Part shown: in pieces, positions 5,326-53,959 of the stretch | How positions within the stretch are numbered: the stretch's first letter is position 1 | Layout of the letters: each line of letters starts with the position of its first letter | From: Alphaproteobacteria bacterium | Lineage (GTDB): Bacteria; Pseudomonadota; Alphaproteobacteria; UBA9655 | DNA length: 64,000 nucleotides | Reading direction: 5' to 3' | NCBI GenBank assembly: GCA_019749915.1 | Contig: JAIEPE010000003.1 | Span: 1 to 64,000 of the forward strand | Made by a program: the position numbers and the translations under genes | The notes under the pieces: model-generated | The model's database searches: none | Seen by the model: only the letters and a program-made list of their open reading frames with translations | Told to the model about the DNA's origin: nothing

Positions 5326-6189
5326 TCAATAACTTATATGGAAATCATCTAATTTCTTTAAAACAAATTTCTCAAAGCTATTTATAGAATTATTTTTTTC
5401 TGATTTCTTTAAAAAAGAAATATGAACTTTCTCAAGTTTTGGAAGAAGATTACTAATATAAGTGAGATTTTTTGGAATCATATTTTTTGGTAGCACAGTT
5501 ACCCCCAATCCAGCTTTAACAGCAGCTAAGGTGCCAGCATAACTTGAGCTCGTATAAACAATACGCCACTTAAACTCTGCAGTTTCTAAAGCTTGAAGAG
5601 AACGTGTTCGATAAATGCAGGGCTGGGGAGAGAGGACGAGCGGAAGAGGCTGTTCTTTATCAAGGGTATCTTTTAAGTTCTGGTTACAAACCCACTCTAA
5701 GGATTCTGTAAACAGATTAACGCCATAGGGGAAATCTTTAGGGCAAGCCATTTTCGTTAAAACAATATCAAATTCACCATTCTTGAATCGTTCCAAAAGA
5801 GTAAGAGTTAGGTCACATTCTACGTTTAGCAAAATGCCAGGATGAACTCGGGAAAAATCTGCAAGCACATCTGCCAAAAAAAAGGTGGCAAAATCTTCAG
5901 GAACTCCAAAACGGATTTCTCCTTTAAGGTGATGTTCTTTAAAACGAGAAATGACCTCGTAGTGTAAGGAGACGATTCGTTGTGCATAGTTGAAAAAAAT
6001 TTCTCCTTCGGTTGTTAAAGAAACAGTTTTTTCTCTTTTTAAAAGAGAAACTCCGAGGGTTTCCTCTAGCTTAGAAATTTGCTGACTAACTGCTGATTGT
6101 GTGCGCCCTACTCTTTCTCCTGCTTTTGTGAAACTGCCAGTTTCAGCTACTGATAAAAAGCATTGAAGAGCAAGATGATCAAACATCAT
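5326..6189 (-). CDS. LysR-family transcriptional regulator
   Basis: A 287-residue protein with an N-terminal winged helix-turn-helix (about residues 4-62; QCFLSVAETGSFTKAGERVG and SAVSQQISKLEETLG are typical LysR). A periplasmic-binding-protein-like effector domain covers about 88-280. It is transcribed away from the sbtA-like transporter, and a T-N11-A palindrome lies between the two start codons. LysR proteins usually regulate the divergent gene and themselves, so it probably controls the transporter in response to a small ligand. Which ligand cannot be read from the sequence. Confidence 0.92.
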   Translation of the reverse strand: MMFDHLALQCFLSVAETGSFTKAGERVGRTQSAVSQQISKLEETLGVSLLKREKTVSLTTEGEIFFNYAQRIVSLHYEVISRFKEHHLKGEIRFGVPEDFATFFLADVLADFSRVHPGILLNVECDLTLTLLERFKNGEFDIVLTKMACPKDFPYGVNLFTESLEWVCNQNLKDTLDKEQPLPLVLSPQPCIYRTRSLQALETAEFKWRIVYTSSSYAGTLAAVKAGLGVTVLPKNMIPKNLTYISNLLPKLEKVHISFLKKSEKNNSINSFEKFVLKKLDDFHISY

Positions 6190-6229
6190 AAGAATCTCTA
6201 ATTTATAAAATTAAAATTATTAACTTTCC

Positions 6230-6244
6230 TTATCATGAGGATAA
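6230..6244. promoter_or_regulatory. Candidate LysR-type operator (T-N11-A)
   Basis: TTATC-ATGAG-GATAA is a perfect 5-bp inverted repeat with a 5-bp spacer, which contains the T-N11-A pattern recognised by LysR proteins. It lies between the divergent LysR gene (start 6189) and the transporter (start 6288), about 44 bp from the transporter start. Confidence 0.5.
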
Positions 6245-6287
6245 ATGCATAGAATGTCTAGAGCAAATGATATTCTGAGAAAAGCTG

Positions 6288-7262
6288 ATGACAATTTTAA
6301 CATTATTTACTCAAAACCTGTTATCTCCAACAATTCTCTTTTTCTTATTAGGGATTTTTTCAGGATTTATAAAATCAGACCTTGTTATACCCGATAGCAT
6401 CGGTCGGTACCTTTCCATTTATTTAATGATGGCTATTGGTTTTAAAGGAGGTGTTGCCCTTACGAGCACACCAGAAATAAATGTTCAAGTCATATCCCTG
6501 CTTTTGGTTGGCTTTGGAATTGGGTTTCTTCAACCGTTTGTTGCATATACACTATTAAAAATAACAACAAAATTAGATCGCGCAACAGCTGCAGCAGTTT
6601 CTGCTCACTATGGATCTATTAGTGTTGTTACTTTTGCTACTGCTGTAAGTTTTTTACAAGAGGCACATATCCTCTATGCTGGTTATATTGTTGCGGTTCT
6701 TGCTCTTATGGAAGCCCCAGCAATTTTTTCGGGCTTAATGATTGCTAATCACCGCTTATCTAAGGAATTAGAAAGAAAGAAAAGTAATTTGAGAGAAATT
6801 TTTACAAATGGAGCTATATTGCTATTAATGGGATCATTTCTCATAGGTATTTTAACGGGAAAGGAAGGTTTAGAAAAAATGACAGGATTTCTTATTGATC
6901 CTTTTCAAGGCTTTTTAGGCCTTTTCCTTCTAGATATGGGGCTTTTAGTATCGAGGCAAGCTCATCACCTAAAAGAATTTAGTCCTAGCTTATTTGTCTT
7001 TGGTATCTACATGCCTTTGATTGGAGGGGTACTTGGTGCAGGGGTCAGCAAAACATTGGGATTAGATATTGGTACAAGTATGCTGTTTATGGTTCTTTGT
7101 TCCAGCGCCTCCTATATTGCGGTTCCTGCTGCAATGCGAACAGCTCTTCCCAACGCAAAAGCCGGGGTCTATATTCCTCTTTCTTTAGGAATTACATTTC
7201 CTTTTAATATATTATTTGGGATACCTTTTTATTTTTTAATTGCAGAACGCATTCTAAATTAG
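6288..7262 (+). CDS. SbtA-like sodium-dependent bicarbonate transporter
   Basis: A 324-residue polytopic membrane protein with about ten hydrophobic segments. The N-terminal half reads LLSPTILFFLLGIFSGFIKSD and later LMMAIGFKGG, and the C-terminal half has SSASYIAVPAAMRTALPNA. These are hallmarks of the SbtA/DUF897 family of high-affinity bicarbonate/sodium symporters first described in cyanobacteria. Heterotrophic homologues exist and their substrate is less certain. It is followed 12 bases later by a DUF6671 gene, with which it is probably co-transcribed, and it is divergent from a LysR regulator. No PII-like SbtB gene is next to it. Confidence 0.85.
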   Translation: MTILTLFTQNLLSPTILFFLLGIFSGFIKSDLVIPDSIGRYLSIYLMMAIGFKGGVALTSTPEINVQVISLLLVGFGIGFLQPFVAYTLLKITTKLDRATAAAVSAHYGSISVVTFATAVSFLQEAHILYAGYIVAVLALMEAPAIFSGLMIANHRLSKELERKKSNLREIFTNGAILLLMGSFLIGILTGKEGLEKMTGFLIDPFQGFLGLFLLDMGLLVSRQAHHLKEFSPSLFVFGIYMPLIGGVLGAGVSKTLGLDIGTSMLFMVLCSSASYIAVPAAMRTALPNAKAGVYIPLSLGITFPFNILFGIPFYFLIAERILN

Positions 7263-7274
7263 ATCCGTATTAAA

Positions 7275-8111
7275 ATGATTTATAAAGATAAATACTGCGT
7301 ACTCAATACACTCCATTCCAAGTCAGAAGCTATTTCTGAACCTTTTTTAAAAGAGTTAGGAATCAGAGTGATTGAGCAAAAAGTAGACACCGATCAACTT
7401 GGAACATTCTCAGGAGAAGTGGAACGTCCTGGTACGATGTTTGAGGTTTTAAAGAAGAAGTGTGAAATGGGACTTGAATTTAGTCGCTTTAGTCTTGGGA
7501 TTGCGAGTGAAGGAAGTTTTGGGCCCCATCCCAGCATTCCCTTTTTAGCCTGTGATTATGAAGCCCTTATATTCATGGACAGTGAAAAAGATTTTTTTGT
7601 TTATGAAGCCATTGTCTCTGAAAAAACAAACTATAGATCAAAAGATATAAATCAAGAAGATGAGTTTTTCGAATTTGCAGAGGCTGTAAAATTTCCTTCC
7701 CATGGAATTATCGTGCGACCTTTGGAATGGGAAGATAAATCTATTATCTTCAAAGGGATAAAGACATTAGAAAAATTTTATCATGCCTTTAAATTTTGTC
7801 AAAAATCATCATCGAGCAAAACTGTACGGCTTGAAACAGATATGAGAGCTCATATGAATCCTACTAGGATGATCGTTATTAGAGAAGTAGCTCAAAAATT
7901 ATGTGAGCGTCTAAAAGTGAAATGTCCAAAATGCAAAATGCCTGGGTGGGGAAAGGTGGGTGTTTTAAAAGGTCTTGAATGTAGTGAGTGTGGCTCACCA
8001 ACAGAATGGATAAAAGAAGAACTTTTTGGATGTGTGAAATGTCCTTATGAACAGCGTATTAAAAAAGAGGATAAAGTTGGCCCCGAGAATTGTGCCTATT
8101 GTAATCCTTAA
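7275..8111 (+). CDS. DUF6671 family protein with C-terminal zinc-ribbon cysteines
   Basis: A 278-residue soluble protein. The N-terminal two thirds contain the stretch GSFGPHPSIPFLACDYEAL, which I associate with DUF6671. The last 65 residues carry four CxxC pairs (CPKC, CSEC, CVKC, CAYC), consistent with two zinc-ribbon-like sites. It follows the transporter by 12 bases. The family has no established function. The cysteine pairs suggest metal or nucleic-acid binding, but that is inference. No membrane segment or signal peptide is visible. Confidence 0.72.
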   Translation: MIYKDKYCVLNTLHSKSEAISEPFLKELGIRVIEQKVDTDQLGTFSGEVERPGTMFEVLKKKCEMGLEFSRFSLGIASEGSFGPHPSIPFLACDYEALIFMDSEKDFFVYEAIVSEKTNYRSKDINQEDEFFEFAEAVKFPSHGIIVRPLEWEDKSIIFKGIKTLEKFYHAFKFCQKSSSSKTVRLETDMRAHMNPTRMIVIREVAQKLCERLKVKCPKCKMPGWGKVGVLKGLECSECGSPTEWIKEELFGCVKCPYEQRIKKEDKVGPENCAYCNP

Positions 8112-8159
8112 TTTATAATGCTGTCTTTTCAAAATTGAGTAACCCCTCTATCCCAGTTT

Positions 8160-8813
8160 TTAATATCCCGCTAGCATTGGAAACTCGTTCTTAATTCCCG
8201 TCATGATGAAGCTAATGCCAATAGATGCAACAATTAAGGCTGTGATTCGTGTAGATATATTAATCCCCGTTTTCCCAATTAATTTTTCAATTGGTAATGC
8301 AGCCCATAAAACAAGAGCTATTAAAAAGGCAACAATAATACTTGCAAAAATCAATAATATTTTATAGGACCAGGACTTAGCATCGCTGGCATATGTCATC
8401 AACATACTAAGCTCTGCTGGTCCGGCCAACATCGGAAAAGCAAGCGGTGTAATTGCAATTTCTTTTATATTTTCTTCTGCCTCTTCATTCTCTCCTTTTG
8501 TTTGGTTAACACGGCTGTATCGTGCTTGAAACATATTAAACGCGATAAAAAGCATAAGAAGGCCACCAGTAATACGAAAATCATTGAGACCAATGTTAAA
8601 AAAAATCAATATTTGCTTTCCGATTAATACTGCACTAATAAAGAAGATGGCAACAGCAATTGAGGCGGTAATAATAATCTTATGGCGCAAAGAAAAAGTT
8701 TCGCTTGAAGTAAGTGATAGGAATACAGGAATAACGCCAATCGGGTTAGCAATGGCAAATAAAAATAGCACTGTTCCAATAAATTTATTCAAATCTATGT
8801 CTATTAAAAACAT
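8160..8813 (-). CDS. MarC family (UPF0056) inner-membrane protein
   Basis: A 217-residue protein with six predicted membrane helices. Family features are the N-terminal FLFAIANPIGVIPVFLSLT, the central ITPLAFPMLAGPAELSMLM, and the C-terminal ASIGISFIMTGIK. Length is normal for MarC/UPF0056. Early links of MarC to multiple antibiotic resistance were not confirmed, and its function is unknown. A good Shine-Dalgarno-like AGGTGAG precedes the ATG at 8813. It lies downstream of the decayed hsp20 copy, so it may be read from the same heat-shock transcript. Confidence 0.88.
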   Translation of the reverse strand: MFLIDIDLNKFIGTVLFLFAIANPIGVIPVFLSLTSSETFSLRHKIIITASIAVAIFFISAVLIGKQILIFFNIGLNDFRITGGLLMLFIAFNMFQARYSRVNQTKGENEEAEENIKEIAITPLAFPMLAGPAELSMLMTYASDAKSWSYKILLIFASIIVAFLIALVLWAALPIEKLIGKTGINISTRITALIVASIGISFIMTGIKNEFPMLAGY

Positions 8814-8840
8814 TTCTCACCTATCAATTTTTTTTATCTA

Positions 8841-9063
8841 TTATAACTTTTTAATCTCTACGCCTTGGAATTTTGCTTTTTTAGGTTCCGCAGAAGCTCT
8901 TCTTATCAGGGAGAGTTCTAGCAAAAATTCTGCCAAATTCTTGATGTAATTGTGTCAAAAAGGCATGGTATTTTTCATTAACAGATTTCACTGGAATACG
9001 TTTAGATTCTGTAAAATCTATACCTTTAAACCAGTTCAGGAAAGAAAGTTTTTTTATGTACAT
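8841..9063 (-). pseudogene. hsp20 remnant with the alpha-crystallin core deleted
   Basis: The first frame starts at 9063 after a GGAG ribosome site and encodes about 50 residues that look like the N-terminus of an Hsp20: a hydrophobic basic start, then a segment ending HAFLTQLHQEFGRIFARTL, parallel to the family's PFLxLHREMNRLFDDFF. It then stops at 8881. In the next frame, reading LELSLIRRASAEPKKAKF and ending VEIKKL with a stop at 8841, comes what looks like the extreme C-terminus of an Hsp20 (typically PK..AKKVKRIEIK). The roughly 90-residue alpha-crystallin domain between is missing and the frames do not match. The simplest reading is an internal deletion in a second hsp20 copy beside the intact one. 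The 60-residue N-terminal piece might still be translated. Confidence 0.6.
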
Positions 9064-9186
9064 TGTTGATCTCCATATTAATTTTAATTACTTGGAAAAT
9101 ACCCTTTTTCATATGGATAATTCTGGGAAGGGTGGATTCGCTCAAAATAGAAAATCTTCTCTTTCTTAAACCCACCCTAAACTTAC

Positions 9187-9678
9187 TTACTTTGACTCCT
9201 TCTTAATATTTGGTTCAAACGTGTTCGCTGCAGCTAAAATTTTTCCATTTACATTCTTAATTGGAATTATGCGGGGCTTAGCTTCTTCAGGAATCTCCCG
9301 TACGAGAGAAATAGAGAGTACGCCGTCTTTGATTGTAGCGTCAGTGACCATCATATGATCTGCTAGGCTGAAGCTGTGTTCAAAAGGTGGGTTTGCTATG
9401 CCCCTATAGAGATACTCGACGTGCTCATCTTCCTTGTCTTCAATATAGCCTTTTATCGTTAATTTTCCATTTTGAACCATGATACTCAGATCGTCCACGC
9501 TGAATCCTGCTACCACCATGGTGATGGCGTAGTTTTCCTCGCCTCGTTTCTCAATATTATAAGGTGGATAAGAATTTGTTGATTCGTTAACTCTTGAAGC
9601 AGATTCAAAAAGATCATTAAAGCGCTCAAAACCTACGGATTGACGCAGTAAAGGGGATAATGATAATACAGCATTCAT
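9187..9678 (-). CDS. Hsp20/alpha-crystallin small heat-shock protein (IbpA-like)
   Basis: A 163-residue protein of the class A bacterial small heat-shock type. It starts SLSPLLRQSVGFERFNDLFE, then has the alpha-crystallin domain (about residues 38-135; YPPYNIEKRGEENYAITM at its entry and GVLSISLVREIPEE at its exit). The C-terminal extension carries the I-x-I/V-type anchor IIPI. It is an ATP-independent holdase that keeps unfolding proteins soluble. A strong AAGGAGG ribosome site precedes the ATG at 9678. The decayed hsp20 copy lies downstream in the same direction. Confidence 0.93.
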   Translation of the reverse strand: MNAVLSLSPLLRQSVGFERFNDLFESASRVNESTNSYPPYNIEKRGEENYAITMVVAGFSVDDLSIMVQNGKLTIKGYIEDKEDEHVEYLYRGIANPPFEHSFSLADHMMVTDATIKDGVLSISLVREIPEEAKPRIIPIKNVNGKILAAANTFEPNIKKESK

Positions 9679-48958: not shown

Positions 48959-49429
48959 GTGAGATGTGCCATGAAAGCTTTATATTTTGAATCCATAACG
49001 TTAATTGAGCGCCTTCATTTTTTGTTTTTAGATGTGATGAAGACAGAACTCGACCGTTTGCGTATTTTTGATATCAATAACGTACAATGCTTTATCTTGT
49101 ATAATGTTGGTAAAAATGAGATGACCGTGGGTGAACTTTCGAACCGGGGTTATTATTTGGGCTCGAATGTATCCTATAATCTGAAAAAACTCGTGGAAAA
49201 CGGCTATTTTGTTCAGGAAAAGGCCAAACACGATAAGAGATCTAGTAAAGTACGCCTGTCCGATAAAGGCTTGAAGCTGTATGACAAGCTAGACAAGATT
49301 TTTACGCAACAAGCTACAAACCTTAAATATAATGGGATTGTAGACCAGAACCTAACCGAAACCCTTAAGCTTATGCGTAAGATTGAATCTTATTGGAATT
49401 TCATCATTTCCCATGGGTTAGTGGAGTAA
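48959..49429 (+). CDS. MarR-family winged-helix regulator (LdtR-like)
   Basis: A 156-residue protein, or 152 if started at the ATG at 48971 (MKALYFESITLIERLHFLFL). The winged helix covers about residues 50-110: VGELSNRGYYLGSNVSYNLKKL is the DNA-reading part and AKHDKRSSKVRLSDKGLKL is the wing. This layout, with RLRIFDINNVQCFILYNVG before it, matches the LdtR/MarR group of alphaproteobacteria that regulates envelope and stress genes. It stands alone. Its neighbour at 49808 may be a target, but nothing shows it. Confidence 0.87.
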   Translation: MRCAMKALYFESITLIERLHFLFLDVMKTELDRLRIFDINNVQCFILYNVGKNEMTVGELSNRGYYLGSNVSYNLKKLVENGYFVQEKAKHDKRSSKVRLSDKGLKLYDKLDKIFTQQATNLKYNGIVDQNLTETLKLMRKIESYWNFIISHGLVE

Positions 49430-49807
49430 AAGAAAGTTTTTTCATAGTGAATCTAATTAATTAATATTTCGACTAACGTCGATTCTGTAACGGTTCTTAA
49501 ATCAAGAGATGTCCCATTAAATTTGATAATCCAGAAGCTTATTAGTCCTTTCATTTATATTATTAAAAAGGTAGGTTGCTTATGCTCTTGCACAGATAGA
49601 ATACTTAATGACATAAAACCAAATTGATGAGCAACGGTGATGTCAAACTTACAGGCAAAACTCGAAAAAGTTCATCCGAGAAATCTTCTTAAGAGTATGA
49701 TTAAGGAAAATATACTTAAGCCTTTAACCGAAGAGGAAAATACGCTAGCTTATGAGAAACATTAAAAAATAGAGGTTCTTTTCAGAAGGAATCATTCAAA
49801 AAATTAT
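49430..49807. other. Intergenic region before the STAND gene
   Basis: About 378 bp, AT-rich. A 41-codon open frame at 49640-49765 (MSNLQAKLEKVHPRNLLKSM and then KENILKPLTEEE) is the only candidate gene; see the separate entry. No terminator is seen after the MarR gene. Confidence 0.35.
49640..49765 (+). CDS. Possible small protein of 41 residues
   Basis: A short open frame beginning MSNLQAKLEKVHPRNLL, with an amphipathic charged composition. It lacks a good ribosome site (only ACGGTG before the ATG), so translation is uncertain. It lies 42 bp before the 1107-residue STAND protein and could be its leader gene or a decayed fragment. Confidence 0.25.
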   Translation: MSNLQAKLEKVHPRNLLKSMIKENILKPLTEEENTLAYEKH

Positions 49808-52800
49808 ATGCAAGAAAGCAATCTCTTTTTTCCTCAAGAAATTTATTCTTCATATTTAACTACCATCAATAGCATAAAACTTTCTAAAAGAGAGATAGAT
49901 ATTATTTCCTGCATCCTTAACGGGCGATCTGCCAAAGGGATTGCTCAGCTTTTATCCATTGCACCTAAAACAGTAGAGACTCACACTTATAATATGATGA
50001 AAAAATTAGATTGTCCTTCACGGGAAAGTCTTATCTCGCTCGCTGAAAAATCAGATAAGCTCCTGCTTCTTAAGGAATATTATCTCAGATTATTGAGTCA
50101 TTTAGCTTTCGAGCAAACTTTAAAAGATATCTCCAAATTAGGCGGTGATGAAGAAAAGAGTTGTATAATTATTTGTTGGAAGGGGGAGGAGATGATTGCC
50201 CTTCTTTTTCAGATTAAAGCTCATCTGGAATTAGTAGGGGTTAAAGTTTCTTTAGAAATTAGAGAAGAATGGCAATCTCTTATGCATTTAATTTCTGATT
50301 CTCAATCTGTTTATTTTACACTCTACGCTCTTCCACAGGAATTAGGGAATAAAAAGAGTGGGGGGGAACTCTTTGAAACAAAAAACCTTTTCTCATCTAA
50401 CGTTTTGTTCCTTGGTTTTGAAAAAGAAACGTTTAGCTATATCTCCGCATCCATTGATGATAATAGATATATAAATTTTTCAGAAAAGAAAGATTATTAT
50501 TTTTCTATTTTTACTCTTTTGAAGAGACTCTTTTCTCAGAGAAACTTTGATTCTCTTATGGAGGAATTTAAGAAAAAGCATCAGTTTATGACGCGTCCTT
50601 CTGAAGTGCCTTCTCAACCATGTCAGCTAACTCCAAAAAAAGGACTCATTTCTTCTCATCTGACGAGATATCTAAAACAAAGAAAATGGTTTTTTGCCGC
50701 TCTATTAGTCATTTGTGGTGGAGCTCTTATTTATCAAGGTTTGTATTTACATTCAAAAGGGAAGGAAGTCCTAGGAGCCAATAATCAGCGCTTTGAAATA
50801 TCACGAGAAATTATTGTTCGTTCTGACCTTAATCTTCCCAATGAGAGAATACTTCTGAAGAGACCTGAACTCATGAGTCAGATTAATGATAAATTAAAAA
50901 GCCAATCTGGGATTCAGACGATAGCTCTTATAGGTATGGGAGGAGCCGGAAAGACGACCCTTGCGCGTTATTATGCTCATCAGCAGAAAGCAAGTGTTAT
51001 TTGGGAGATTAATGCTGAAACGCATGAAAGTCTTCAAGCATCATTTGATCATTTAGCGCAGGCTCTTGCTAAAACAGAAGAAGATCAAGAGAGGTTAAGA
51101 GAACTGCAAGGAATTAAGAACTCGGTAGAAAGAGAAAAGAAAGTGGTTCAGTTTGTCAAAGAGCATCTGAAAGCCCACTCAAATTGGTTTCTTCTCTATG
51201 ATAACGTTGAAAAATTCATCGATATCCAGAGTTATTTTCCACAAGATATTGCGACATGGGGGCAAGGAAAGGTTATTCTTACAACCCGCAATAGCAACAT
51301 TCAAAATAATAAACATGTTAACTTTAGCCTTTTCGTTGGGGAACTTGATCCTGTCCAAAAGCTGAATCTTTTTTCTTATATTATGAGTAATGGAGGCTCC
51401 TCTTTCTTTACCCCTCAACAAACGGCAGAAGCAAAAGCATTTTTAGAAAATCTACCGTCTTTCCCTTTGGATATCTCTATTGCGGCTTATTATTTGAAAA
51501 GTTCTAACGTTTCTTATGATCAATTTCTAAAACAAATATATAAATATAATCAGGAATTTGAAAATGTCCAAGTGGATCTTCTAAAGGAGGCAGGGGATTA
51601 TACAAAAACCCGTTATGCTATTATTACCTTATCTTTACAGCAATTAATAGAATCACATGAGGAATTTAGAGATCTTTTGCTTTTTATAAGCCTTATTGAT
51701 TCTCAAAATATTCCTAGAGAATTGCTGGAGAGGTATAAGAGCTCGACTACTATAGATAATTTTATTCACCATTTAAAAAAGTATTCTCTCATCACCCATG
51801 AGTCTTCTCCCTCTTTAATCTCTACTTTTTCTATCCATCGTAGCACGCAAGCAATAATTTTAATGTATCTTTCTAATATGTTAAATTTAAAGGAAAATAG
51901 AAAGATTCTCCTCCCTATTGTAACAACTTTAGATAATTATATGGCTAATTTAGTACATAGAGAAGACGTTCCAAAAATGAAAATTATAGTGAGTCATTGT
52001 AATTCGTTATTAACTCATAATCTTTTATTAAATCAAGTTGTTAAAGGGTCTATAAACGCTATTTTAGGAGGGATATATTCTTATTTAGGAGATTATGTAA
52101 AAGCTCAAGATCTTCTTAAAGAAGGGTTATTAAATTTAAAAAACAGTAAGGACAATAAGAAAGAAAATTTTAAAATCGCTTGGGTTTTAGAGCAGTTAGG
52201 TAGCGTTTATGGTGAATTAGGAAATTATAAACAAGCTAAGGATATTTTTGAACAAAACATTCTGCTTTACAAAAGTTCTTCTAAAGTTCATTTAGGACTT
52301 ATCCGTACTACAGCTGAGTTAGGATATGTATATAAAGAACTCGGTTATTACAGAAAAGCCGCAGATCTCTTCCAACACAGCCTTACCCTGTATAAGGAAT
52401 ATTTTCCTGAAGATTACGTTGGAATTGCTTGGTCTTTATTATATCTTGGATATCTTTATCAAGACTTAGGCAACTATGAGAATGCAAAAAATTACTATAA
52501 GAAAAGCCTGTTAATCTGTAAAACCTACCTTCCTGAAAATCATATTGTCACGGCTTGGGTTCTAAGTCATTTAGGAAATATAGAGAGAAAACTTGGAAAC
52601 TATGAAACTGCTAAAAATTTAGTCGAACACGCTCTCAGAATTTGCCAAGCACACTTTCCTGATAATCATGTTGGACTTGCAGTCATTTTAGTGCACTTAG
52701 GAAAAATATATATGAATAAAAACAATTATAAGGAAGCTAAGCTACTTTTTAACAAGAGTTTGACCATCTTTGAAAATCATTATTCTGGAAACCACGTAAG

Positions 52801-53131
52801 AATTGCTCTTGTTCTAAGAGAGTTAGCCGCAATTTATCTTTTAGAAAACCAATTAAAAAAAGCTGAGGATTTTCTTAATAAGGCTAATTATATATTTCAA
52901 GAAAATAATCATCCACAGGGTTTTGTGATTCTAAAAGATTTAGCAGAACTTCAGCTTACAAAGCTCAACCGTCTTAATAATAAAGAAAAGACTCAACAAT
53001 CTGAAATCTTAAAAAATCAAGCAATAACTTATTTTAATCAAGCCTTAAAGATTATAAATACACGTTTTCCAGAAGACTCACCCCATGCCAAAAGAATTCA
53101 ACTTAAGCTTAAAGAATTAGAAAAAAATTAA
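49808..53131 (+). CDS. LuxR-HTH / membrane anchor / NB-ARC / TPR STAND protein
   Basis: A 1107-residue multidomain protein. Residues 25-69 are a LuxR/GerE-type helix-turn-helix (LSKREIDIISCILNGRSAKG). Residues about 118-265 alternate strands and helices (CIIICW, GVKVSLEI, SVYFTLYAL, NVLFLGF), like a TIR or SEFIR module, but I see no certain catalytic residue. Residues 294-314 are a membrane helix (WFFAALLVICGGALIYQG). The NB-ARC NTPase follows: P-loop GMGGAGKTT (376-384), Walker B FLLYDN (461-466), KVILTTRN (about 488). From about 745 to 1095 come TPR repeats of about 42 residues in the kinesin-light-chain style (GNYETAKNLVEHALRICQ). STAND proteins act as ligand-gated switches, often in immunity or signalling. 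The start has only a weak ribosome site (AGAAGG 17 bases away). Confidence 0.85.
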   Translation: MQESNLFFPQEIYSSYLTTINSIKLSKREIDIISCILNGRSAKGIAQLLSIAPKTVETHTYNMMKKLDCPSRESLISLAEKSDKLLLLKEYYLRLLSHLAFEQTLKDISKLGGDEEKSCIIICWKGEEMIALLFQIKAHLELVGVKVSLEIREEWQSLMHLISDSQSVYFTLYALPQELGNKKSGGELFETKNLFSSNVLFLGFEKETFSYISASIDDNRYINFSEKKDYYFSIFTLLKRLFSQRNFDSLMEEFKKKHQFMTRPSEVPSQPCQLTPKKGLISSHLTRYLKQRKWFFAALLVICGGALIYQGLYLHSKGKEVLGANNQRFEISREIIVRSDLNLPNERILLKRPELMSQINDKLKSQSGIQTIALIGMGGAGKTTLARYYAHQQKASVIWEINAETHESLQASFDHLAQALAKTEEDQERLRELQGIKNSVEREKKVVQFVKEHLKAHSNWFLLYDNVEKFIDIQSYFPQDIATWGQGKVILTTRNSNIQNNKHVNFSLFVGELDPVQKLNLFSYIMSNGGSSFFTPQQTAEAKAFLENLPSFPLDISIAAYYLKSSNVSYDQFLKQIYKYNQEFENVQVDLLKEAGDYTKTRYAIITLSLQQLIESHEEFRDLLLFISLIDSQNIPRELLERYKSSTTIDNFIHHLKKYSLITHESSPSLISTFSIHRSTQAIILMYLSNMLNLKENRKILLPIVTTLDNYMANLVHREDVPKMKIIVSHCNSLLTHNLLLNQVVKGSINAILGGIYSYLGDYVKAQDLLKEGLLNLKNSKDNKKENFKIAWVLEQLGSVYGELGNYKQAKDIFEQNILLYKSSSKVHLGLIRTTAELGYVYKELGYYRKAADLFQHSLTLYKEYFPEDYVGIAWSLLYLGYLYQDLGNYENAKNYYKKSLLICKTYLPENHIVTAWVLSHLGNIERKLGNYETAKNLVEHALRICQAHFPDNHVGLAVILVHLGKIYMNKNNYKEAKLLFNKSLTIFENHYSGNHVRIALVLRELAAIYLLENQLKKAEDFLNKANYIFQENNHPQGFVILKDLAELQLTKLNRLNNKEKTQQSEILKNQAITYFNQALKIINTRFPEDSPHAKRIQLKLKELEKN

Positions 53132-53200: not shown

Positions 53201-53959
53201 TTAGTTTGCTTGTCCTGGCTGCATTTCAGGAGCAGATTCCCACTTTTTACGCATTGGCGCAGTCTGTGCTCTATACATCACACTGTCGCTTGGGAGCGGC
53301 CTGTTTAACATATAAGGCATTGTGTAAGCGATAGCTGCCCTTTGCGTATATACCGAATAAGGATGCATATAGCTTGGGTACCAGTACATTCCACGTAGAC
53401 GTGCTGGAGTGTAACCATTCAACAAAGTTGCATTAACATGTGGATACCAGAAGTAACCTCCGTGATAAGCATAAGGGCATTCTGTTCTTCCTTCATAGAA
53501 TTCAGGTCTATAAGTATCACCCAAATTCATGGGAGGGAAGGTTACAAAAACGCCGCCAATGTCAGCTTCGTTCGGATACTGAGGGTAACCCATATAAGCG
53601 TGGTGCTTAGCATGATGCCCGTGATGCTTGGCATGATGTCCATGGTGCTTAGCATGATGTTCATGATGTTTAGCATGATGCCCGTGGTGTGCGTGATGGG
53701 CTCCATGATGTTGAGCGGTAGGTTTCTTCATTTGTGAAGAACCAGTGCTTGAACTTGCACTTGGTGCTGTAGCCTCGGTTGACCCCGTGGTTGAAGAGGA
53801 AGTTGTCCCCGTTGATTGGTGGGCGCCATCAGCAGCAAGTGATGAACTTTGAGATTCTGTTTGTGAACTCTTATCGTTCATATTATTTGCTGGTTCAGCT
53901 TGAACAGCAAAAGCTGAAAGGGCTAGAACTGAAACTGTTGTTAAAATTAAATTTTTCAT
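53201..53959 (-). CDS. Secreted histidine-rich repeat protein
   Basis: A 252-residue exported protein with signal peptide KNLILTTVSVLALSAFAVQA. A Ser/Thr-rich linker (about 28-75) leads to a His-rich block (about 83-120) made of repeats of the type HHAKHHGHHAKHHG. The C-terminal half is rich in Tyr, Pro and Met (YPHVNATLLNGY, MYWYPSYMHPYSVY) and probably forms a small beta domain. The His block could bind zinc, nickel or copper. I do not know the family. Clear terminator at 53155. Confidence 0.75.
   Translation of the reverse strand: MKNLILTTVSVLALSAFAVQAEPANNMNDKSSQTESQSSSLAADGAHQSTGTTSSSTTGSTEATAPSASSSTGSSQMKKPTAQHHGAHHAHHGHHAKHHEHHAKHHGHHAKHHGHHAKHHAYMGYPQYPNEADIGGVFVTFPPMNLGDTYRPEFYEGRTECPYAYHGGYFWYPHVNATLLNGYTPARLRGMYWYPSYMHPYSVYTQRAAIAYTMPYMLNRPLPSDSVMYRAQTAPMRKKWESAPEMQPGQAN

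What the first reader, a model, noticed from the sequence alone, without database searches (positions are those of the whole stretch)
49808..53131. A STAND protein with a LuxR DNA-binding head, membrane anchor, NB-ARC NTPase and TPR sensor
The order HTH (25-69), alpha/beta module (about 118-265), membrane helix (294-314), NB-ARC (about 360-640) and TPR (about 745-1095) is seen directly. Known STAND regulators such as MalT have the HTH at the C-terminus and no membrane anchor; immune STAND proteins carry an effector at the N-terminus. Here a DNA-binding domain is at the effector end and is tied to the membrane. The alpha/beta module has the strand/helix alternation of TIR or SEFIR domains. Possible roles are a membrane-bound transcription switch released by ligand binding, a defence protein sensing phage, or a host-signal sensor. 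This is the best candidate in the window for an undescribed system.
Basis: partly seen in the sequence, partly recalled or inferred. Interest (0 to 1): 0.8.

Follow-up and report, generated by a model that had tools for sequence, protein, structure and literature searches.

The report
Membrane-anchored LuxR–STAND receptor controlling secreted proteases
A symbiotic alphaproteobacterium carries about eleven copies of a large predicted membrane-bound gene switch with exchangeable sensor ends, and a shared DNA control element ties this gene family to its own copies and to genes for secreted enzymes such as proteases, suggesting a previously undescribed system for sensing the surroundings (probably the host cell).

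Summary
The 1107-aa ORF at 49808-53131 is GerE/LuxR HTH – alpha/beta module – hydrophobic helix – NB-ARC – TPR. It is a lineage-specific multigene family: 11 copies in its own 2.08-Mb genome, present in 16 of 17 genomes of its order and in a scattering of small-genome alphaproteobacteria. All 49 full-length members share the layout.

New here: a ~50-bp double dyad (window 49672-49720) lies upstream of roughly 60-70% of family genes. A model of it finds further sites in front of genes for secreted proteins (papain-like, trypsin-like, thermolysin-like and C26 peptidases and unknowns), always in inverted orientation. Its presence follows the HTH recognition-helix type. The TPR sensor is swapped between paralogs while the N-terminal half stays conserved; a tandem pair shares a 1253-bp identical tract.

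Best reading: a ToxR-like membrane-bound one-component regulator with a STAND switch, controlling itself and a secretome. Charge bias puts the N-terminus in the cytoplasm, so NB-ARC–TPR would face the periplasm. These bacteria encode ATP/ADP translocases (16/17 genomes), so host ATP could be available there; this is inferred. DNA binding, topology and ligand are untested. New variant of known kinds.

The parts
49672..49693 (+). Operator site S1 (TCATCCGAGAAATCTTCTTAAG), distal half of the shared element (family consensus cTATCCtGGAAATnCCCTWAG)
   Evidence: EM motif search in upstream regions; real log-likelihood 236 vs 107-127 in six shuffles on 36 upstream regions chosen to leave out close orthologs; coordinates
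49700..49720 (+). Operator site S2 (ATTAAGGAAAATATACTTAAG), proximal dyad (family consensus CTAAGGGAAAATCCCTTAG)
   Evidence: model R1 hit 49674-49719, E 2e-7 (the window site is in the training set)
49723..49751 (+). Possible promoter: TTTAAC (49723-49728), 17 bp, TAGCTT (49746-49751). Weak and tentative; same spacing in two close homologs, and a better TTGAAC-17-TAATAA follows the operator in L065 and L058
   Evidence: Read from sequence
49808..53131 (+). Gene for the LuxR–alpha/beta–TM–NB-ARC–TPR protein (1107 aa)
49880..50044 (+). GerE/LuxR-type HTH, residues 25-79; recognition helix PKTVETHTYNMMKKL
   Evidence: PF00196 4e-16; matched in all 48 members scanned
50159..50593 (+). Alpha/beta module, residues 118-262, TIR-like at profile level, fast-evolving
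50687..50749 (+). Predicted membrane helix, residues 294-314 (WFFAALLVICGGALIYQGLYL)
50870..51373 (+). NB-ARC NTPase, residues 355-522; P-loop GMGGAGKTT 376-384, Walker B WFLLYDNVE 460-468, TTR 492-494
   Evidence: PF00931 6e-11; motif conservation; coordinates
51374..51907 (+). Rest of the NOD: FPLDIS 552-557 (STAND GxP position), winged-helix-like part, FSIHRSTQ 674-681 (MHD-like)
   Evidence: Conservation; coordinates; assignment from known STAND motifs
52028..53107 (+). TPR sensor, about residues 741-1100; exchanged between paralogs

Best explanation
This is one of about eleven paralogous membrane-anchored one-component transcription regulators of an obligate intracellular alphaproteobacterium. 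The LuxR-type HTH lies in the cytoplasm and binds a paired-dyad operator in front of the regulator genes themselves and of genes for secreted hydrolases and other exported proteins. The NB-ARC domain is a STAND nucleotide switch, and the TPR array, exchanged between paralogs by recombination, supplies ligand specificity. Ligand binding would open the switch, multimerise the protein and bring HTH pairs together on the double operator, turning the secretome genes on (or releasing repression). Shown: architecture, family, conserved NTPase and HTH motifs, shared upstream element, its place before secreted-protein genes, sensor swapping. Inferred: that these HTHs bind the element, the sign of regulation, the ligand, multimerisation, and that the NB-ARC–TPR part faces the periplasm.
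For: Family and conservation. Shared upstream element well above shuffled controls. The model built from family genes finds non-family sites in the order: 14 lie 11-196 bp upstream of genes for exported or probably exported proteins; by a simple signal-peptide rule 12 of 17 target genes score positive against 24% of 371 background ORFs, p 1e-4. 12 of 22 non-family sites are upstream of such a gene against 11.7% of intergenic positions within 250 bp of one, p 1e-6 (orthologs not removed). Site and target stay together across genomes for the papain-like, trypsin-like, 454/464-aa and 643/656-aa proteins. Orientation is opposite to the target gene in all 14 and the same as the gene in family genes. 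In other families of the class, four of six hits lie 22-132 bp upstream of family genes (G258, G149, two in G297), and none occur in ten genomes with no NB-ARC family protein detected. Operator presence follows HTH recognition-helix type: 28/31 vs 2/17, p 8e-8. Membrane helix flanks: net charge +3.4 before, +0.7 after; 45 of 49 higher before, none lower.
Against: No binding or expression data. HTH type and operator are both inherited, so the covariation p-value is inflated by shared descent. Non-family sites were found with a family-derived model, so their resemblance to family sites is partly by selection. A single N-in membrane helix would put the NTPase in the periplasm, where ATP is normally absent; the ATP/ADP translocases make host ATP there plausible but do not prove it. 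TPR cysteine content is near background (0.97% vs 1.12%), unlike the cysteine-poor NB-ARC. Seven of eleven distant family-positive genomes gave no operator hit with this model.
Confidence: 0.66

Rival explanations
1. Same regulator, but the hydrophobic segment is a monotopic or hairpin anchor, so NB-ARC and TPR stay in the cytoplasm and sense an internal ligand.
For: NB-ARC proteins normally work in the cytoplasm; TPR cysteine content is near background; the segment is barely long enough to span and often rich in glycine.
Against: Strong one-sided charge bias typical of a spanning N-in helix (45/49); no second hydrophobic segment in nearly all members; NB-ARC and winged part are cysteine-poor (0.2%).
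Confidence: 0.4
2. The upstream element is bound by another, unrelated regulator (for example one of the short C-terminal-HTH LuxR proteins), and the STAND proteins are merely members of that regulon.
For: Short LuxR proteins exist in these genomes and one sits beside an operator site.
Against: Operator presence follows the family's own HTH type; no operator hits in G016, which has HTH-only matches and no NB-ARC family member; operator adjacent to family genes even in distant families of the class.
Confidence: 0.22
3. Anti-phage STAND receptor (Avs-like) with the HTH as an unusual effector; TPR swapping reflects an arms race with phages.
For: NB-ARC plus variable TPR sensors and a TIR-like module are typical of immune STANDs; strong sensor diversification.
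Against: No specific PADLOC match; conserved DNA-binding head with its own operator and secreted-enzyme targets; no viral relatives; no obvious defence-island context in the neighbourhoods read.
Confidence: 0.08
4. The dyads are transcription terminators or a mobile repeat rather than an operator.
For: Inverted repeats; S1-like palindromes also occur beyond the 3' ends of repeated S9-peptidase-like sequences.
Against: Two spaced sites kept across paralogs and families, upstream of starts, often followed by a promoter-like sequence, with consistent orientation rules.
Confidence: 0.07

Closest known systems
MalT and other LuxR-type STAND regulators (LAL); PMC6468293, PMC4381067, PMC10427625
   Same: LuxR-type HTH, STAND NTPase, TPR-type sensor (PF17874 TPR_MalT matches at 2e-18), probable ligand-driven multimerisation on repeated sites
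   Different: HTH is N-terminal instead of C-terminal, an alpha/beta module and a membrane helix are inserted, many paralogs with swapped sensors, secreted-enzyme candidate regulon
ToxR/CadC-type transmembrane transcription regulators (PMC10269533)
   Same: N-terminal DNA-binding domain, single predicted membrane helix, C-terminal sensor, control of genes at the bacterial surface or host interface
   Different: GerE-type HTH in place of the ToxR winged helix; sensor is an NB-ARC–TPR STAND unit with intact NTPase motifs
FxSxx-COOH system TPR protein (NF040586) and actinobacterial NB-ARC–TPR proteins
   Same: NB-ARC–TPR half aligns over residues 352-1048 (180 bits)
   Different: Below the family cut-off of 300 bits; the match does not cover the LuxR head or membrane helix
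Bacterial immune STANDs (Avs and bacterial NLRs)
   Same: STAND core, repeat sensor, possible TIR-like module, diversification of the sensor
   Different: N-terminal part is a DNA-binding regulator with an operator, not a nuclease/protease effector
Rhs polymorphic toxins with C-terminal displacement
   Same: Conserved N-terminal part with exchanged C-terminal part between copies
   Different: A receptor sensor is exchanged, not a toxin; comparison from general knowledge and a reference listed in PMC8163844

Membership tests
STAND NTPases (NB-ARC clade) | P-loop, Walker B, TTR/sensor 1, GxP-type and MHD-like motifs in one NOD | tested here: met
   PF00931 6e-11; ALvG.GGaGKTTLAR, LIyDNVe, TTRd, IPpFPLDvS and SIHrSTQ conserved in 49 members
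STAND NTPases (NB-ARC clade) | Nucleotide-dependent multimerisation | not testable with these tools
   Needs biochemistry
MalT/LAL regulators | LuxR HTH at the C-terminus | tested here: not met
   GerE at residues 25-79 of 1107
MalT/LAL regulators | Full-length MalT family model above cut-off | tested here: not met
   NF003420 37 bits against cut-off 537
ToxR-like transmembrane transcription regulators | N-terminal cytoplasmic DNA-binding domain followed by one membrane helix | tested here: met
   (predicted, not measured)
ToxR-like transmembrane transcription regulators | Trans_reg_C type winged helix | tested here: not met
   GerE HTH instead
ToxR-like transmembrane transcription regulators | Periplasmic C-terminal sensor | tested here: inconclusive
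   Charge bias supports it; cysteine content is mixed
LuxR/NarL-type DNA-binding proteins | Canonical GerE HTH with conserved recognition helix in homologs | tested here: met
   All 48 members match PF00196; the significant PDB profile hits are all HTHs of this type
TIR/SEFIR domains (residues 118-262) | Sequence-profile match | tested here: inconclusive
   No TIR or SEFIR Pfam match listed; hhalign to TIR_2 E 4e-5 to 1e-4, controls 0.03 or worse; other flavodoxin-like folds not compared; SEFIR too rare in the sampled class for a comparison set
TIR/SEFIR domains (residues 118-262) | Fold match | tested here: inconclusive
   Model pLDDT 46, so the fold search was uninformative
FxSxx-COOH TPR proteins (NF040586) | Score above cut-off 300 bits | tested here: not met
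   180 bits
Anti-phage STAND (Avs-like) | Match to a known defence model beyond single generic domains | tested here: not met
   PADLOC matches are partial and domain-level only: generic TPR, HTH parts of CARF/CasR models, P-loop part of VakA

The most novel reading that the evidence does not exclude
A STAND (NB-ARC) switch that works outside the cytoplasm: the NB-ARC–TPR half is in the periplasm of an intracellular bacterium and uses host ATP that reaches the periplasm (the same pool its ATP/ADP translocases import), so that host-cell contact is converted directly, through one membrane protein, into transcription of a secretome. Recombination between paralogs supplies new sensor ends, giving the bacterium an NLR-like receptor repertoire pointed at its host.
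Probability: 0.3. Interest if true: 0.92.

Novelty: new variant of a known kind. Interest (0 to 1): 0.77.

Why it matters
Nothing in the papers searched describes STAND regulators anchored in a membrane by their DNA-binding half, nor a large paralogous receptor family in Holosporales-like symbionts (open-access literature only). If right, it offers (1) a directly testable operator and target list in uncultured symbionts that cannot be manipulated easily, because the HTH and operator can be tested in a laboratory E. coli; (2) candidate secreted enzymes of these symbionts, found by their operator; (3) a bacterial system where receptor specificity changes by swapping sensor cassettes while the output half stays fixed, comparable to NLR repertoires; and (4) a test of whether a STAND ATPase can work in the periplasm on host ATP.

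Tried and rejected
A Pfam match of two members to ElaD/SseL-like_C (5e-6) was not found again in ten members scanned one by one and was left unexplained. A 20-mer pattern search gave as many hits as its reversed control except at 2 mismatches or fewer, so the profile model was used. Viral contigs hold no relative. The idea that one site (L190) marks a target was dropped: its sequence is nearly that of a family-gene operator near a contig end. Weak R1 hits in L205 and L206 have no gene start nearby and were not counted as targets. The neighbouring ~195-aa proteins were considered as LuxI-like synthases, but Pfam, NCBIfam and PDB give no support. The window protein is not placed in any named defence family.

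Full report
What was checked. The ORF at 49808-53131 is real and intact, with GerE at residues 25-79, NB-ARC at 355-522 and TPRs to about 1054. The best NCBIfam match is the FxSxx TPR protein (180 bits, cut-off 300), covering only the NB-ARC–TPR half. PADLOC offers only generic or partial, domain-level matches.

A gene family. The own genome (2.08 Mb, 73 contigs) has eleven copies of this architecture, one of them broken. Of 17 genomes of the order 16 have a match to the N-terminal third, up to 17 matches per genome (one of them, G016, only to the HTH). In a sample of 385 genomes of the class 15 do, mostly of 0.9-2.6 Mb; in a sample of 399 of the phylum only the own genome and one other alphaproteobacterium do. 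Forty-nine full-length proteins were aligned: HTH, NB-ARC motifs and the winged part are strongly conserved, the alpha/beta module and the linker are not. A hydrophobic segment lies at the same place in all 49.

Organism. An orthologous locus (57% identical) is labelled Alphaproteobacteria MAG. All but one of the 17 genomes have ATP/ADP translocases, and a copy in the own genome is followed by two genes that look like type VI secretion genes tssF/tssG (read from sequence), as expected of Holosporales-like obligate intracellular symbionts, which typically carry a non-standard type VI system (PMC11909080) and, in a Paracaedibacter-like relative, many Sec-secreted enzymes including proteases (PMC8163844). 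The assignment is an inference.

Sensor swapping. Against its nearest paralog on contig C69 the window protein is mostly 61-90% identical over residues 1-700 (36% in one alpha/beta stretch) and then drops at once to 24-50% in the TPR part. Orthologs in other genomes keep similar identity in NB-ARC and TPR (80/73, 88/91, 91/93%), whereas close paralogs in one genome have 65-78% in NB-ARC and 36-40% in TPR. The two tandem genes on C69 are identical over 1253 bp (nt 223-1475 of the gene), with some differences before and about 40% identity after, the mark of recent gene conversion of the output half between genes with different sensors. The assembly is fragmented and this repeat should be confirmed with long reads.

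A shared upstream element. An unbiased motif search of upstream regions found a two-site dyad, ctATCCtGGAAATnCCCTWAG–N6–CTAAGGGAAAATCCCTTAG. On 36 upstream regions chosen to leave out close orthologs the likelihood is 236 against 107-127 in six shuffles. In the window the two sites are 49672-49693 and 49700-49720, followed by a possible weak promoter. A sequence-only model (R1) was built from family genes only; in the own genome it finds the elements before nine of eleven family genes (seven at E below 0.01; most are training sites) and additional sites.

Candidate regulon. In the order, R1 finds about twenty sites not in front of family genes. Reading the neighbours, fourteen stand 11-196 bp before genes whose products look exported: papain-like peptidase (two genomes), trypsin-like peptidase (three genomes), a thermolysin-like protein with HETGH (two genomes, plus a relative in a third), a C26 peptidase, a 643/656-aa protein (two genomes), and several unknowns (Pfam; the thermolysin-like match is below its cut-off and rests also on the HExxH motif). 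Signal-peptide-positive targets are 12 of 17 against 24% background, p 1e-4; location before such genes is far above random intergenic positions. These p-values treat orthologs as independent and use a simple home-made signal-peptide rule. The element is inverted relative to the gene in all fourteen, but has the gene's direction in family genes. A likely reason is visible: 22 of 31 operator-bearing family genes have a divergent neighbour, and in G149 that neighbour is a relative of an operator-bearing thermolysin-like target elsewhere (30% identity, 9e-40), so the ancestral unit may be regulator – operator – secreted gene.

Who binds it. A weight matrix made only from target sites scores above the 99% null in 31 of 50 family upstream regions; members with recognition helix [KR][TS]x[ED] have it (28 of 31), the others mostly lack it (2 of 17), p 8e-8. 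Descent is not corrected for, and target sites were found with a family-derived model, so this is supportive, not proof. In distant families of the class, R1 hits are few, but four of six lie 22-132 bp before family genes, and ten genomes with no NB-ARC family protein detected have none.

Topology. Flanking charge is +3.4 before and +0.7 after the helix; higher before in 45 of 49 and never lower. By the positive-inside rule the HTH side is cytoplasmic, and with no second helix the NB-ARC–TPR side is periplasmic. NB-ARC and the winged part are poor in cysteine (0.2% against 1.1% background), the TPR part is not. A periplasmic NTPase normally lacks ATP; in bacteria that import host ATP through inner-membrane translocases, host ATP must cross the periplasm (established physiology of such translocases), which weakens the main objection. 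A monotopic anchor remains possible.

The middle module. Residues 118-262 are predicted, at low confidence, as alternating strands and helices and align end to end with TIR_2 profiles better than all controls. No receiver or flavodoxin control was compared, so the statement is TIR-like, not TIR.

Verdict.

Noticed in passing
L190:3178-3780, L082:7846-8427, L072:4017-4685, L057:7992-8657 and others (alignment A5): A conserved 176-222-aa protein (IEPKDH...YGGAxLLK...PGEYLCTE) lies next to family genes at many loci, often divergent from them; no Pfam, NCBIfam or PDB relative. Possible partner of the regulator.
   Followed up: partly
window 53201-53959 (-): Secreted His-rich protein with HHAKHH-type tandem repeats (TRF 53599-53689), convergent with the STAND gene; no operator found near it.
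   Followed up: no
window 48959-49429 (+): MarR-type regulator (PF13463, PF12802) directly upstream of the gene; not seen as the upstream neighbour of the other family copies examined.
   Followed up: partly
L055 (G000:C44) 5991-9329: Broken paralog: two ORFs of 598 and 456 aa, beside transposase-like ORFs; it keeps its operator.
   Followed up: no
G000:C72:46904, C43:18050, C72:101933 (L160, L159, L156): S1-like palindrome CTACCCTGGAAATTCCCCTAGGTAG beyond the 3' end of repeated S9-peptidase-like sequences; may be a repeat family or relocated operators.
   Followed up: partly
L062, L073, L085, L089, L091, L098, L101 and relatives: Subfamily with HTH of type RGT[SN]KIAS..P.TV.TH lacks the operator; TTTACAG words recur upstream of some, perhaps a second operator or promoter class.
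   Followed up: no
L052 (JALEGO010000490.1): A relative of the C-terminal half (query residues 463-1098) in a contig binned as Flavobacteriales MAG; probably mis-binned rather than transfer.
   Followed up: no
L061:5290-6105, L102:4401-5249, L064:12243-13088: Family of about 270-290-aa proteins with a C-terminal LuxR HTH in the same genomes; one gene neighbours an operator site (L142).
   Followed up: no
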